From contig NZ_NVEC01000065.1 of assembly GCF_002571225.1 (NCBI RefSeq), forward strand, positions 1 to 64,000: a stretch of 64,000 nucleotides of DNA. Reading direction: 5' to 3'. The notes below the pieces were generated by a model, which ran no database searches, was not told where the DNA came from, and saw nothing but the letters and a program-made list of their open reading frames with translations. This document shows positions 2,992 through 35,527 of this stretch, piece by piece. Origin of the DNA: Bacillus sp. AFS059628. GTDB lineage: Bacteria; Bacillota; Bacilli; Bacillales; Bacillaceae_G. How positions within the stretch are numbered: the stretch's first letter is position 1; each line of letters starts with the position of its first letter. Position numbers and translations under genes: made by a program.

Positions 2992-3275
2992 TTAAATAAA
3001 TGAAATCGTTGAAGTAAGAAGAGTACGTATATTGGAGACGTTACAGAGAGCCGGGGATAGGTGGGAGCCCGGTGCGGTGCCATATACGGAATGGGCTTAC
3101 GAGAGGTATGCTGAACAATTCTTTTCAGTAGGCAACCCGGGTTCCGCCGTTACAAGGATAAGGTATATATTTTGTACCTGAATAAAGCGGGATGCTTTTG
3201 CGTCCAACATGAGGTGGTACCACGGTAAATTTATCGTCCTCTACATATTTTCGATATGTAGGGGACTTTTTTATT
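2992..3275 (+). promoter_or_regulatory. T-box riboswitch 2, tryptophan specifier
   Basis: A second full T-box directly after the first. It has AGAAGAGTAC near 3017, CAGAGAGCCGGGG near 3045, the specifier TGG at 3092-3094 in the same GAATGGGCTT context, the T-box AGGTGGTACCACGG at 3212-3225, and a terminator pairing GTCCTCTACATAT with ATATGTAGGGGAC (3236-3266) before a T run. Two Trp-specific units in series should give a tighter, more switch-like response to tRNA-Trp charging than one. Confidence 0.95.
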
Positions 3276-31356: not shown

Positions 31357-31626
31357 ATGCAGACAGTAACTTCATATCCATGGTCGTTAAGAAAAATGTT
31401 TGTATTTTTCCTTTGCTTCATCCTTCCGCCAATCGGTGCAATTTATAGTTTGATGAATCAAGAGGCGCTACAAAAGAGAGACTTCATTTTATATGTATTA
31501 TTTGTTGCTATTAATATATCGCTTTGGTTATCGCTTATGATCTTTAATCGGAGTATGTGGATGGTAGCGGGGCATTATGTGCTTGGAGCAATTGTTATTG
31601 TTGTTTCGAATATGAATAAGAAATAA
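31357..31626 (+). CDS. small integral membrane protein
   Basis: An 89-residue protein with three likely membrane segments (12-32, 41-60 and 65-84). The loop between the first two is charged (NQEALQKRDF). The ribosome site is weak (AGAGATCC), which leaves the start slightly uncertain. It follows the preceding gene by 17 bp and ends at a terminator. The function is unknown. Confidence 0.6.
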   Translation: MQTVTSYPWSLRKMFVFFLCFILPPIGAIYSLMNQEALQKRDFILYVLFVAINISLWLSLMIFNRSMWMVAGHYVLGAIVIVVSNMNKK

Positions 31627-31627
31627 G

Positions 31628-31656
31628 CCAGCAACCTTAAAGTTGCTGGTTTTTAT
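31628..31656 (+). terminator. terminator
   Basis: CCAGCAAC and GTTGCTGG arms with a 6-nt loop, then TTTTTATTTT. Confidence 0.85.
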
Positions 31657-31707
31657 TTTGCTATTTATAATGAAGAAACAAATTTTTAATAGAGAGTAGT
31701 GGGCGTT

Positions 31708-32253
31708 ATGAGATGGAAAGAGGGAACGTTTGAAAAAATAGAAACGAATGACTCATCTGTTGAGCAACTCGTACATACATTCAAGGAGCAAAACGTAAAT
31801 GGCGGAGCGATTATAAGCTGTTTTAAAGTACATAACGGAAATTTTTTCAAAGAAATACCACATTCGAAAGATGGATACGAGCACTTCTTTCGAAGAATCT
31901 TTAACTCTTTAGATATAATTAATAGCTTAGAAGAGTTAAAAATACATACGTCAGAAAAATATAAGTTTCATTTTAAAGAGCAGCTAGCAGTCATGCTTGA
32001 TGGTAGCATTGCCGCGCAAATTTTGTGGGGCGGAGCATATGAAGGGTTTAAGGAACGACCAGTTATCGCCAAGCAATTAGCAGTCAATGTATGTCAATAT
32101 ATGTTCCAAGATCGATACGAAGATATTAAAGTGTTTGAAAGCTATCGCCCTTGGACAGATTGGTTTTACGATGTTGCGTGGGATGTTACTTGGATGGTGT
32201 TAGATAGTAAGGAGCATAAAATGTGGTTAGTTTGTGTTACGGATACGGATTGA
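31708..32253 (+). CDS. hypothetical soluble protein
   Basis: A 181-residue protein from ATG 31708; a GTG at 31699 is in frame but is only 2 nt from the likely ribosome site AGAGAG. It is rich in Trp and Phe towards the C-terminus (YRPWTDWFYDVAWDVTWMVLDS). There is no signal or membrane segment. I do not recognise the family. It is monocistronic, with an imperfect terminator just behind. Confidence 0.6.
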   Translation: MRWKEGTFEKIETNDSSVEQLVHTFKEQNVNGGAIISCFKVHNGNFFKEIPHSKDGYEHFFRRIFNSLDIINSLEELKIHTSEKYKFHFKEQLAVMLDGSIAAQILWGGAYEGFKERPVIAKQLAVNVCQYMFQDRYEDIKVFESYRPWTDWFYDVAWDVTWMVLDSKEHKMWLVCVTDTD

Positions 32254-32256
32254 TAG

Positions 32257-32293
32257 AAGAGGGCCTTGTAGAAATGCTGCAAGGCTCTTTATC
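32257..32293 (+). terminator. imperfect terminator
   Basis: AAGAGGGCCTTG pairs imperfectly with CAAGGCTCTTT, followed by a T-rich stretch. Confidence 0.6.
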
Positions 32294-32410
32294 TTTTGGG
32301 AATGAATAGAAAATGAATCATATAAATGCTATACTAAAAAATGTTTGTAATGTCATTTTTATACTATTTTATAGTGATGACTTACTAGAAAAGATAAGAG
32401 GAGAATGAAC

Positions 32411-33007
32411 GTGCAAAAGATAAAGAAATTATTGTTGTTAATGATGGTAGTAGGATTAACAGTAGGTGTTTTAGCAGGATGTGCAAATCCGAAAGATACG
32501 ACAGAAGAATTTTTAACAGCGATACAAAAAGGTGATGTAGAAAAGGCTCGTACATTTGTTGAGAGTGACAAAGAATTTAATAAACTAAATGAAAAAACAG
32601 ATGATGCTGAGGCAAAAGCAATGCTGAGTGTAATTACGAAAAACTTTAAATTTGAAAAGCTAGAAGAAGTATCGAAAAAAGATGACAAAGCAGAAGTGAA
32701 AGTGAAAATTACATCTGCCGATCTATCTGTGGCTGTAACAAAAGCAGTAGGAGAAGTTATGTCAATGGCCTTCGCTAGCGCTTTTAGCGAAGACAAAGAG
32801 CAATCTGAAAAAGCAATCGAAAAAACAATGACATCAGCAATCGTCAAACACTTATCAGATAAAGATGCAATCATGGCAACTCGCGAAGTTACATTGAACT
32901 TAAAGAAAAACAAAGATGGCGACTATAAAATCGTTGCAGATGATAACTTGAAAGAAGTATTGTTTGCCAATGCGAAGTCTTTGGAGAAGATGTTTGGTGG
33001 GAAGTGA
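32411..33007 (+). CDS. lipoprotein with a DUF4878/NTF2-like domain
   Basis: A 198-residue lipoprotein. The signal peptide ends in the lipobox LAGC, with Cys24 as the acylated residue. The mature part starts NPKDTTEEFLTAIQKGDVEKARTFV, typical of NTF2-like DUF4878 lipoproteins. I choose GTG 32411, which is 8 nt after AGGAG; an ATG at 32405 is only 2 nt away from that site. It is anchored on the outer face of the membrane, with unknown ligand. A terminator follows. Confidence 0.8.
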   Translation: MQKIKKLLLLMMVVGLTVGVLAGCANPKDTTEEFLTAIQKGDVEKARTFVESDKEFNKLNEKTDDAEAKAMLSVITKNFKFEKLEEVSKKDDKAEVKVKITSADLSVAVTKAVGEVMSMAFASAFSEDKEQSEKAIEKTMTSAIVKHLSDKDAIMATREVTLNLKKNKDGDYKIVADDNLKEVLFANAKSLEKMFGGK

Positions 33008-33018
33008 TTGATTTAGAT

Positions 33019-33068
33019 AAAAAAGAGAAGCCATATCAAGTAGAAGGTTGATATGGTTTCTCTTTTTT
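33019..33068 (+). terminator. terminator, its tail abuts the island repeat
   Basis: AAAAAAGAGAAGCCATATCA pairs with a near-perfect partner at 33048-33068. The T run of the tail is the start of the left 29-bp repeat. Confidence 0.85.
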
Positions 33069-33093
33069 ATGACCCCGGAGAGGCTCGAACTCA
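33065..33093 (+). repeat. left attachment-like repeat (free copy of the tRNA-Val end)
   Basis: Identical over 29 bp to 35450-35478, in the same orientation, starting TTTTATGACCCCGG. Beyond it, identity drops to 6 of 9 bases. Confidence 0.8.
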
Positions 33094-33464
33094 GAATCTC
33101 CATCAACAATCTTTCATGGTTATAGCAGATGATAGGGGATGAAAGTTGTTGTAGCTCCGTTCCATAGAGATACTATACAGGAAACAGTTGATAGGCATAC
33201 CTCTTTAGTTTTATCTAGAAAAATAGAATGGGAATAGGTCTACGTATTTAATAGTAGATACTTATAGTAGAAATAATTTCGTAGAATGGGACTAGATGAT
33301 ATTACTGAGTTAGCGCCAATGCATAAGGTATAATTTCAAATGCCGAAAGGATAACTTTTAGGATAGAAAGAGTTTGGAGTTGTAAGATTATATAAAATAT
33401 TCGTAGTTGCAACAATTCTATTGTGGTAAAATATTCTATATAAATATTTAAAAGGGGAATGGCT

Positions 33465-34340
33465 ATGGGGGATATAAAAGTTACTCCTGAACAGTTGCGA
33501 AAAGTGGCAGGGACTATTAGATCAACTATCATGAATGCAACTGCAACACAGGAGCGACTAAAACGAGATATTGATATGATTTCTAGTAATTGGTTGGGCT
33601 CAACCTATATGAAATTTAATACGGATTTCCGTGATTCATCCTTTAAGATGGGACAATTTATAATCATATTAGAGCCACTTGAGAAGTTTCTTCTTGATTC
33701 TGCTAATAAATTCGAACAGGTAGATAATATGGATGTTGCTATTGCGATGGCTTCTGGTATTCTTAATAAAAATAATGATAAAGTCGAATATCTTACGGGT
33801 AAGGCAGAAGGTGCTGAAGGAGATCGACTTGGAGGGAAATTAGAAGGTACAGTAGTAAATGGTGAGTTTGAATTAAGTAAGAATAGTAAAATAAATACAA
33901 AGTTCGGTACTGGTTCTGCAGAGCTAAATATTCCGTATAGTAAAGAAACACTCCGCGAAGATGCTTCTAGTGGTAACTTGATTGGTGGAAAAGTGGAGGC
34001 ACGCGCTCAAGAAACATCTTATGTAAGAACGGATATTCCTTATATGGAAGATATAACTGTAACTCAAAAAATGCACGATTTTAGTAGTATTGTAGGTTAT
34101 GATGAGTATACAGCGAAGGTAGGTGCGGAATATAGTTCGCGCAAGTATGAATTGCTTTTAGAGAAAATTGATGTTCCGGATATTATTCCGTATTTCAGTG
34201 ATCACGATATAACAATCCGCTTAGAATTGGGAGTAGGGACTTATGGGTATAAGCTTCACATGGGTCAAGAGAAAGGTTTTTATGCATCATACGAAGGTTT
34301 TGGAGGAGGTTTTTTCTTGAAACCTGAAAAAAAGGAGTAA
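33465..34340 (+). CDS. WXG100-type secretion substrate with an unassigned C-terminal domain
   Basis: A 291-residue protein. Residues 1-90 form a WXG100-like helical hairpin: KVTPEQLRKVAGTIRS at the start and the turn motif Trp43-Leu44-Gly45 in SSNWLGSTYMKF. This marks a type VII secretion substrate. The rest (about 95-291) is Gly-rich and beta-like (KINTKFGTGSAELNIPYS, LGVGTYGYKLHMGQEKGF), with no recognised toxin catalytic motif. ATG 33465 is 7 nt after AAGGGG. The downstream genes are DUF4176 and small membrane proteins, a typical T7SS cargo setting. A toxin role is inference. Confidence 0.72.
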   Translation: MGDIKVTPEQLRKVAGTIRSTIMNATATQERLKRDIDMISSNWLGSTYMKFNTDFRDSSFKMGQFIIILEPLEKFLLDSANKFEQVDNMDVAIAMASGILNKNNDKVEYLTGKAEGAEGDRLGGKLEGTVVNGEFELSKNSKINTKFGTGSAELNIPYSKETLREDASSGNLIGGKVEARAQETSYVRTDIPYMEDITVTQKMHDFSSIVGYDEYTAKVGAEYSSRKYELLLEKIDVPDIIPYFSDHDITIRLELGVGTYGYKLHMGQEKGFYASYEGFGGGFFLKPEKKE

Positions 34341-34346
34341 TCACAC

Positions 34347-34550
34347 ATGTTTAAACAAGGACGTATTTTGATGTATATTTTTACCGCGGTTTTATTTTTT
34401 TCTTCATTCTTTTTTCCGCAGCCAATGGAAAAAAGGTTTTTAACAGCTATTGCAGCATTGATTATTGGTGGAATAGGTATTGGAATTTCCTATCTATTAG
34501 AAATTTTGAGTAACAAGTCGAAGAATATATCTAAAAAGAACGGAGAATGA
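34347..34550 (+). CDS. 67-residue membrane protein, candidate immunity or partner
   Basis: Two membrane segments (about 5-22 and 30-51) and a Lys-rich tail (SNKSKNISKKNGE). The start is 6 bp after the WXG gene and the end overlaps or touches the DUF4176 gene, so they are one operon. Small membrane proteins next to secreted T7 substrates are often immunity factors against membrane or wall-targeting toxins; here that is only a possibility. Confidence 0.6.
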   Translation: MFKQGRILMYIFTAVLFFSSFFFPQPMEKRFLTAIAALIIGGIGIGISYLLEILSNKSKNISKKNGE

Positions 34551-34552
34551 CG

Positions 34553-34801
34553 ATGGAACTTTTCCCGATTGGTTCAGTTGTAAAGCTAAAAGATCTAAAC
34601 CAACCTGTTATGATTATTGGAAGAATGGTCATTTCAGCGGATAAACGTGATTTTGATTATGTAGGGGTTCTTTATCCGGTGGGTTATTTAGGTGATGAAA
34701 AAGTATTATGTTTTAATCATGATAAAATTGTAGAGGAAATGCATAGAGGGTATATGACTGAGAGTGAATTGGTTCTACGTGAGAAATTAGTAGAATTGTA
34801 A
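34553..34801 (+). CDS. DUF4176 protein
   Basis: An 82-residue protein, MELFPIGSVVKLKDLNQPVMIIGR onwards, with FDYVGVLYPVGYLG in the middle, the recognisable pattern of DUF4176. This family is repeatedly encoded with type VII secretion substrates, and its function is not established. ATG 34553 is 6 nt after GGAGA; an overlapping ATG at 34547 directly touches the site. It is part of the island operon. Confidence 0.75.
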   Translation: MELFPIGSVVKLKDLNQPVMIIGRMVISADKRDFDYVGVLYPVGYLGDEKVLCFNHDKIVEEMHRGYMTESELVLREKLVEL

Positions 34802-34841
34802 AAAGAAACGTAAATCTTAAAGATATGATAGGGGAAACAAA

Positions 34842-35030
34842 ATGGGAAAGATAATGAGAACTCTTGTAATCATAGGTATACTTATCCCTCCGGTACTACT
34901 GTGGAGTGCACCTGATATTCCTCTAAATGATAAACTGCTGTTTACAGGTTTACAACTAACTGTAGGATTCACCACAGTAGTAGTGTTAGAGGTTATATTT
35001 AGAAATCGAAAAAAGAAGAGAGCAAAATAG
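34842..35030 (+). CDS. 62-residue membrane protein
   Basis: Two membrane segments (about 4-22 and 32-52) and a basic tail (RNRKKKRAK). ATG 34842 follows AGGGGAAAC. It is 40 bp after DUF4176 and probably the last gene of the island operon. Its size, topology and charge match the 67-residue gene upstream, so it could be another immunity-type partner. That is an inference from context. Confidence 0.6.
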   Translation: MGKIMRTLVIIGILIPPVLLWSAPDIPLNDKLLFTGLQLTVGFTTVVVLEVIFRNRKKKRAK

Positions 35031-35098
35031 ATATAAATTGTATAGAATGGCAGATAAGAATATTGGTGGTTAATCATCTCAATAAAAGAAGCTAACAG

Positions 35099-35128
35099 AA
35101 GCAGGGAGAAATCCTTGCTTTATTTTTT
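35099..35128 (+). terminator. likely terminator of the island operon
   Basis: AAGCAGG and CCTTGCTTT stem with one mismatch, followed by TATTTTTTG. Confidence 0.6.
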
Positions 35129-35316
35129 GTATAGAATTGCTAAGTAGAGTATCGTTAAATCAGGATATCTGAAGGGGGGGATAGGGATCTGAGTTAGATA
35201 AACGGTAGTCTTAAGAGTTATCTAACTGATTTCAATGAGTGTAAAAACTATAATTTTAATTACTATACAAACTTAAGTAGCATTTTCTTTTTAGTCCTTT
35301 CTCAGTTTTATGGAAA

Positions 35317-35371
35317 CAAAAAAGAGGACGTCCCCTGAGCCAGCTGGTTTGCTGACTAGAAGTAGTCCTCT
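35317..35371 (-). terminator. terminator downstream of tRNA-Val
   Basis: On the minus strand AGAGGAC (35371-35365) pairs with GTCCTCT (35329-35323) with an inner CAGC/GCTG stem, then TTTTTTG. It lies about 85 bp past the tRNA 3' end, inside the island segment. Confidence 0.7.
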
Positions 35372-35449
35372 GTTAACTTGTGGTGTCTGATGGAGATCTC
35401 CATAAGTTTAGCTTTTGAGAATACCCCCTCAAGCCTTGATACTATTAGG

Positions 35450-35478
35450 TTTTATGACCCCGGAGAGGCTCGAACTCA
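35450..35478 (+). repeat. right attachment-like repeat, within the tRNA-Val 3' end
   Basis: Second copy of the 29-bp repeat. It covers the T arm, acceptor strand and 5 bp beyond the tRNA. Confidence 0.8.
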
Positions 35479-35527
35479 CGACCTCCACCCTGTCAAGGTG
35501 GCGCTCTCCCTGCTGAGCTACGGGATC
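35455..35527 (-). tRNA. tRNA-Val, anticodon GAC
   Basis: A cloverleaf is visible on the minus strand. The acceptor is GATCCCG with CGGGGTC (one G-T pair), the D arm is GCTC/GAGC, the anticodon stem CCACC/GGTGG encloses loop TTGACAG (anticodon GAC), and the T arm has loop TTCGAGC. The T stem has one T-T mismatch (GTGAG with CTCTC). The discriminator is A and CCA is not encoded. It is a single tRNA, not in a cluster, and its 3' end is the island repeat. Confidence 0.88.

What the first reader, a model, noticed from the sequence alone, without database searches (positions are those of the whole stretch)
33065..35478. Small integrase-less island between two perfect 29-bp copies of the tRNA-Val end
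The 29-bp direct repeats, one inside a tRNA 3' end, are the signature of tRNA-directed integration. The cargo is a WXG-type substrate with two small membrane proteins and DUF4176, a type VII secretion-linked set. It is just 2.4 kb and has no integrase, so it would be mobilised in trans or is a deletion remnant. I know of no described element of this shape at this tRNA in the B. cereus group.
Basis: partly seen in the sequence, partly recalled or inferred. Interest (0 to 1): 0.78.

Follow-up and report, generated by a model that had tools for sequence, protein, structure and literature searches.

The report
Prophage-scar island at a tRNA-Val gene
A 2.4-kb stretch between two copies of the end of a tRNA gene looks like the leftover of an integrated phage-like element that kept its passenger genes for a type VII secretion cargo protein but lost its own integration enzyme; such remnants are a known kind of thing, though I found no description of this one.

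Summary
An exact 29-bp repeat (33065-33093, 35450-35478; 35 of 38 when extended) ends in the 3' end of an intact tRNA-Val(GAC) gene and brackets four genes: a WXG100-domain protein, a small hydrophobic protein, a DUF4176 protein and a second small hydrophobic protein. No integrase was found inside. Joining the flanks puts the tRNA directly on a bidirectional terminator-like hairpin, as an empty site should look. An IMG/VR record 93% identical over the left flank has, at that junction, other DNA and then a 47-nt tRNA-Val 3' match beside a tyrosine integrase of a satellite- or prophage-like element. So this tRNA end is a used integration site and the window's arrangement is not fixed. A 38.7-kb prophage record carries the second small gene and DUF4176 (80% identical) behind its endolysin, at the end opposite its integrase. 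Best reading: a CIME-like, decayed prophage-type element that kept its att sites and a T7SSb cargo cassette. No B. cereus-group chromosome was found in the collections searched, so empty sites could not be surveyed. New member of a known kind; modest interest.

The parts
33017..33070 (.). terminator-like hairpin with 23-nt arms on both strands, which would serve both the lipoprotein-like gene and tRNA-Val in an empty site
   Evidence: (z -8.5 on each strand); the consensus scan lists it on the minus strand only
33065..33093 (+). distal att-like copy of the tRNA-Val 3' end (29 bp; 35 of 38 to 33102)
33459..34340 (+). 293-aa protein: WXG100 domain (6-90) plus glycine-rich C-terminal part; putative T7SSb substrate
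34347..34550 (+). 67-aa small hydrophobic protein (TM1); similar by shuffle test to the L009 small protein, not to TM2
34547..34801 (+). DUF4176 protein (family called Ltc chaperone in PMC13355648)
34842..35030 (+). 62-aa small hydrophobic protein (TM2); relatives next to DUF4176 in prophage record L063 and in L008
35098..35131 (+). terminator-like hairpin after the cargo genes
   Evidence: folding alone is weak (8 of 200 shuffles of 35062-35135 fold as well)
35318..35371 (-). terminator-like hairpin now downstream of tRNA-Val, inside the island
35450..35478 (+). proximal att-like copy, overlapping the tRNA 3' end
35455..35527 (-). intact tRNA-Val(GAC)

Best explanation
The 2.4 kb is the remnant of a prophage-type element that integrated by site-specific recombination into the 3' end of tRNA-Val. 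Shown: the two repeat copies, the intact tRNA, the cargo, the absence of a recognisable integrase, and integrases beside tRNA-Val 3' copies in other records, one of them next to the same left-flank genes. Inferred: the incoming element restored the tRNA end at its right and left the displaced copy at its left. Later deletion removed integrase, phage and lysis genes and kept both att sites and the passenger genes, giving a CIME-like island. The cargo most likely encodes a type VIIb secretion substrate (WXG100 head, glycine-rich tail) with a DUF4176/Ltc-type chaperone. The two small hydrophobic proteins are best guessed to be immunity or partner proteins; that step is inference only. Movement, if any, would need an integrase supplied by another element at the same tRNA.
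For: Repeat, intact tRNA and sharp loss of similarity outside the repeat. Joined flanks put tRNA-Val directly on a hairpin with 23-nt arms, while the island brings its own terminator-like hairpin for the tRNA. L041 (IMG/VR record G400): 93% identical to window 31357-33009, then 1.5 kb of other DNA, a 47-nt match to the tRNA-Val 3' end and a tyrosine integrase, with repressor-, excisionase-, primase- and small-terminase-like genes. G401 has two tRNA-Val 3' copies 15.6 kb apart (47 nt identical; 71 nt at 90%), each near an integrase gene. L063 (record G404, 38.7-kb prophage): TM2-like and DUF4176 genes (80% amino-acid identity) behind holin and GH25 endolysin, integrase at the other end, portal and capsid genes between. 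PHROGs has families of unknown function that match the WXG head and the DUF4176 protein. CIME definition: PMC5704250, passages.
Against: No true empty site and no longer version of this very island was seen; no B. cereus-group chromosome was found in the collections searched. The attP-like inner arm of the left copy has no exact match in IMG/VR, and the island has no DNA relative in the phage or plasmid records beyond tRNA-size and chance-size pieces. The WXG gene itself was not found in a phage: L063 ends at the TM2 gene, and the WXG query found no relative in IMG/VR, phage records or G404; its two PHROG matches cover the WXG head only. Short repeats that might be integrase arm sites are at chance level (68 of 500 simulations as good). 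Composition is host-like. L041 ends before the tRNA, so the same cargo further on in that strain is not excluded.
Confidence: 0.66

Rival explanations
1. A small integrase-less element that is still mobilised in trans by the integrase of a satellite or prophage at the same tRNA.
For: Both att-like copies are intact over 29 bp; integrases next to tRNA-Val 3' copies exist in other records.
Against: No second copy of the island and no close relative of its WXG gene was found in phage, plasmid or IMG/VR records. The L041 copy matches the tRNA end over 47 nt but the window's left copy over 29, then 35 of 38, so the two need not answer to one integrase.
Confidence: 0.1
2. The left copy is a partial duplication of the tRNA 3' end unrelated to integration, and the cargo is ordinary chromosomal DNA.
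For: Host-like composition; no integrase or phage structural gene is recognisable in the island.
Against: 29 of 29 identity that stops sharply within the tRNA, as att cores do; the same tRNA end is found next to integrases, once beside the same left-flank genes; two cargo genes have relatives at a prophage end.
Confidence: 0.1
3. The island is one member of a former tandem array at tRNA-Val: other elements came and went, and the cargo may come from more than one of them.
For: G401 has two tRNA-Val 3' copies 15.6 kb apart with integrase genes near each; L041 has 1.5 kb of other DNA between the left-flank gene and the att copy; tandem accretion is described for such sites (PMC5704250, passages).
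Against: Only two copies are present in the window, and three of the cargo genes look like one unit found elsewhere.
Confidence: 0.14

Closest known systems
CIME (cis-mobilizable element; PMC5704250, passages read)
   Same: att-flanked, no integration genes, at a tRNA 3' end, in a site where tandem elements occur
   Different: CIMEs are defined there as decayed ICEs or IMEs; here the cargo points to a prophage-type parent, and cis-mobilisation was not shown
T7SSb LXG effector operons with Lap partners and DUF4176/Ltc chaperone (PMC9600955, PMC13355648, PMC11322744, passages read)
   Same: secretion-type N-terminal domain, DUF4176 gene, small genes that could give immunity
   Different: WXG100 rather than LXG head; no Lap1/Lap2 (DUF3130/DUF3958) among the four cargo proteins; no secretion machinery within the island
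LXG toxin genes on phage-type elements of B. subtilis (yobL, yokI, yqcG; PMC8321402, one passage read)
   Same: T7SS cargo genes carried on phage-type elements
   Different: this cargo is a WXG100 protein in a 2.4-kb stretch without phage genes

Membership tests
[quoted passage not shown]
   repeats and tRNA; that they act as att sites is inferred
CIME | no integrase gene | tested here: met
   none of the four cargo proteins is one; tblastn of four integrase queries, no match inside
CIME | derived by decay of an ICE or IME that has lost integration and transfer genes | tested here: inconclusive
   two cargo genes have relatives at a prophage end; no longer version of the island seen
CIME | mobilised in cis after accretion with an integrating element | not testable with these tools
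   needs excision and transfer data
T7SSb LXG effector operon | LXG N-terminal domain | tested here: not met
   Pfam gives WXG100, no LXG family at E up to 1
T7SSb LXG effector operon | Lap1/Lap2 (DUF3130/DUF3958) partner genes | tested here: not met
   not among the families of the four cargo proteins; shorter ORFs of the island were not scanned
T7SSb LXG effector operon | DUF4176 (Ltc) gene | tested here: met
   PF13780 3.8e-26; PDB 9dcs DUF4176 chain at 6.6e-7
WXG100 T7SS substrates | WXG100 domain | tested here: met
   PF06013 1e-11, TIGR03930 6.7e-17; EsxB chains in the PDB at 2.4e-13
WXG100 T7SS substrates | secretion through T7SSb | not testable with these tools
   needs a secretion assay

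The most novel reading that the evidence does not exclude
T7SSb cargo cassettes (WXG100 protein, small hydrophobic proteins, DUF4176 chaperone) are passenger genes of temperate phages, placed behind the lysis genes. After prophage decay they persist as att-flanked mini-islands that other integrases at the same tRNA can still move, so that strains exchange secretion cargo through phage attachment sites.
Probability: 0.15. Interest if true: 0.6.

Novelty: new member of a known kind. Interest (0 to 1): 0.36.

Why it matters
It links a T7SSb cargo cassette to a phage attachment site and to a prophage gene neighbourhood, which suggests how such orphan cassettes may spread in Bacilli. The mechanism class (att-flanked remnant at a tRNA) is known, so the gain is a concrete, checkable example rather than a new kind of element.

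Tried and rejected
Arm-type integrase sites: the 8-mer TAGAATGG occurs 3 times in the two non-coding arms, but 68 of 500 simulated arm pairs had an 8-mer at least as frequent; dropped. A 10-base inverted match between the arms is also near expectation (1 seen, mean 0.46 in shuffles). Foreign base composition: not seen. Parent element by its attP arm: no exact match in IMG/VR; the 43-base att query gave 14 phage and 4 plasmid records, E 0.2 or worse, none from Bacillus. The exact 29-mer gave 0 stretches in IMG/VR, the 22-mer inside it 6. The plasmid hit H29 (B. paramobilis phage-plasmid) matches only the N-terminal half (29.5% over query 3-141); no DUF4176 was found in its fetched locus. A tRNA next to the DacA relatives L028-L030: none found, in short loci. 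Flank proteins in IMG/VR: the lipoprotein-like gene found only G400 again, the DacA-like gene nothing. The att surroundings in G402 had no close match in plasmids. Structure prediction was asked for seven times and never ran, so nothing is claimed about the fold.

Literature: the searches (0 papers; 15 listed; 1 listed, on a Pseudomonas) showed, in their listings, no paper on an element at this tRNA in the B. cereus group; none of those papers was opened. That is not proof of absence. PMC12478183 and PMC12482557 (DUF4176 work) are not held and are known here only through the reference list of PMC13355648.

Full report
What is there. The 29-bp direct repeat is exact (33065-33093, 35450-35478), 35 of 38 when extended. 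It has no other place in the window with up to 3 mismatches, and 100 shuffles gave none. The right copy is the 3' end of the only tRNA found in the window, tRNA-Val(GAC), 35455-35527 minus. Beyond the extended repeat, 6 of 40 bases match inward, and 6 of 40 match outward, so the left copy does not look like a decayed whole tRNA.

Empty-site test. The 54-nt stretch 33017-33070 folds into a hairpin with 23-nt arms; on both strands the 3' arm ends in a run of T that pairs with a run of A (z -8.5 on each). The consensus scan lists it as terminator-like on the minus strand only. Joining 33009-33064 to 35450-35527 in a script puts the tRNA directly on this hairpin. In the present state the tRNA runs instead towards a terminator-like hairpin inside the island (35318-35371). 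This is what an insertion between tRNA and terminator predicts, but it is an inference from one sequence.

Other strains. No genome was held for the window. The genome-contig scan with the DacA-like flank protein gave 6 loci, the best 35% identical. In 398 genomes of the class of one of those loci (G001, the Paenibacillus senegalensis locus L005), the best match was 44%. I infer that the B. cereus group is not held there. IMG/VR was searched instead. The exact 22-mer of the tRNA end hit 6 stretches in 5 contigs. In three contigs 36 or more nt are identical to the window's tRNA-Val end: G400, G401 and G402; G401 has a second copy, 90% over 71 nt. The other two match over 26 and 29 nt at 96%, one of them inside a tRNA-Lys gene.

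The most useful record is L041 (G400, 18,755 bases). It is 93% identical to window 31357-33009 and then departs. It carries a 217-aa and a 128-aa ORF, then a 47-nt match to the tRNA-Val 3' end at 3198-3244, then a tyrosine integrase (PF00589, 7.1e-30), a repressor-like and an excisionase-like gene, a D5-type primase and a small-terminase-like gene. Models of the WXG and DUF4176 proteins found no relative in its ORFs of 40 aa or more; but the record ends before the tRNA, so cargo further on cannot be excluded. L049 carries the same integrase at 98%. G401 has a tRNA-Val 3' copy 200 bases after a 219-aa integrase ORF, perhaps a fragment, and another 50 bases from a second integrase (24.8% identical to the L041 enzyme over 242 columns).

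The cargo. The 293-aa protein has a WXG100 domain and a glycine-rich remainder for which Pfam gave nothing above its cut-off. DUF4176 is secure. PMC13355648 (passage) says that Ltc chaperones, formerly DUF4176 proteins, bind a disordered region of some LXG toxins and stabilise them. PMC9600955 and PMC11322744 (passages) report DUF4176 genes in LXG clusters. In one search, 44 of 398 genomes had a match to the 293-aa protein, mostly over its WXG part. Of the 20 loci fetched there, 2 (L008, L009) carry DUF4176 within the fetched stretch, in the order WXG-type protein, small protein, DUF4176; 18 do not. L009's protein lacks the W-x-G motif in the alignment and was matched through its C-terminal part. 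TM2 resembles the L063 and L008 small proteins, and TM1 the L009 one (0 of 200 shuffles as good in each); TM1 and TM2 do not resemble each other (101 of 200).

The phage link. With DUF4176 as query, IMG/VR gave 28 pattern matches and 1 relative: L063, 80% identical, in a 38,667-base record. At one end lies an integrase (PF00589, 1.2e-26), in the middle portal and capsid genes, then a holin and a GH25 endolysin. Facing these at the far end lie DUF4176 (PF13780, 1.6e-26) and a TM2-like gene. The record stops at the TM2-like gene, so a WXG gene beyond it is unproven. The WXG head matches two PHROG families of unknown function (9.8e-10 and 1.5e-7) and the DUF4176 protein one (1.8e-19), so related proteins are filed from phages; the small proteins match none. 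With L063's DUF4176 as query, 8 of 50,697 phage records matched, all under 60% identity, from Streptococcus, Staphylococcus or unnamed hosts. PMC8321402 (passage) places three B. subtilis LXG toxin genes on phage-type elements, so phage carriage of T7SS cargo is not new.

Conclusion. The finding is real and best read as a decayed, att-flanked, prophage-type element: CIME-like in form (PMC5704250, passages), with a T7SSb cargo cassette. The step 'mobilised in trans' has no support here. The missing survey of B. cereus-group chromosomes is the decisive gap.

Noticed in passing
L044 7861-7896 (record G402, 71 kb): A 36-nt tRNA-Val 3' copy beside a type IV restriction gene (AspBHI-N plus Mrr domains) in a record that also holds a ParA-type ATPase gene and ORFs that look phage-like by eye; a block of about 53 nt is repeated five times in L044.
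   Followed up: partly
L042 15234-15280 and L043 12861-12931 (record G401): Two tRNA-Val 3' copies 15.6 kb apart, each near a tyrosine integrase gene, one of them perhaps a fragment; looks like tandem accretion.
   Followed up: partly
L065 8388-8606: Group I intron (Rfam RF00028, 96.9 bits) in the prophage record that carries the DUF4176 gene, between two long ORFs in the presumed tail region.
   Followed up: no
L007 8001-9674: B. paramobilis phage-plasmid with a different WXG100 protein and two small ORFs facing annotated amidase and holin genes, the same kind of place as in L063.
   Followed up: partly
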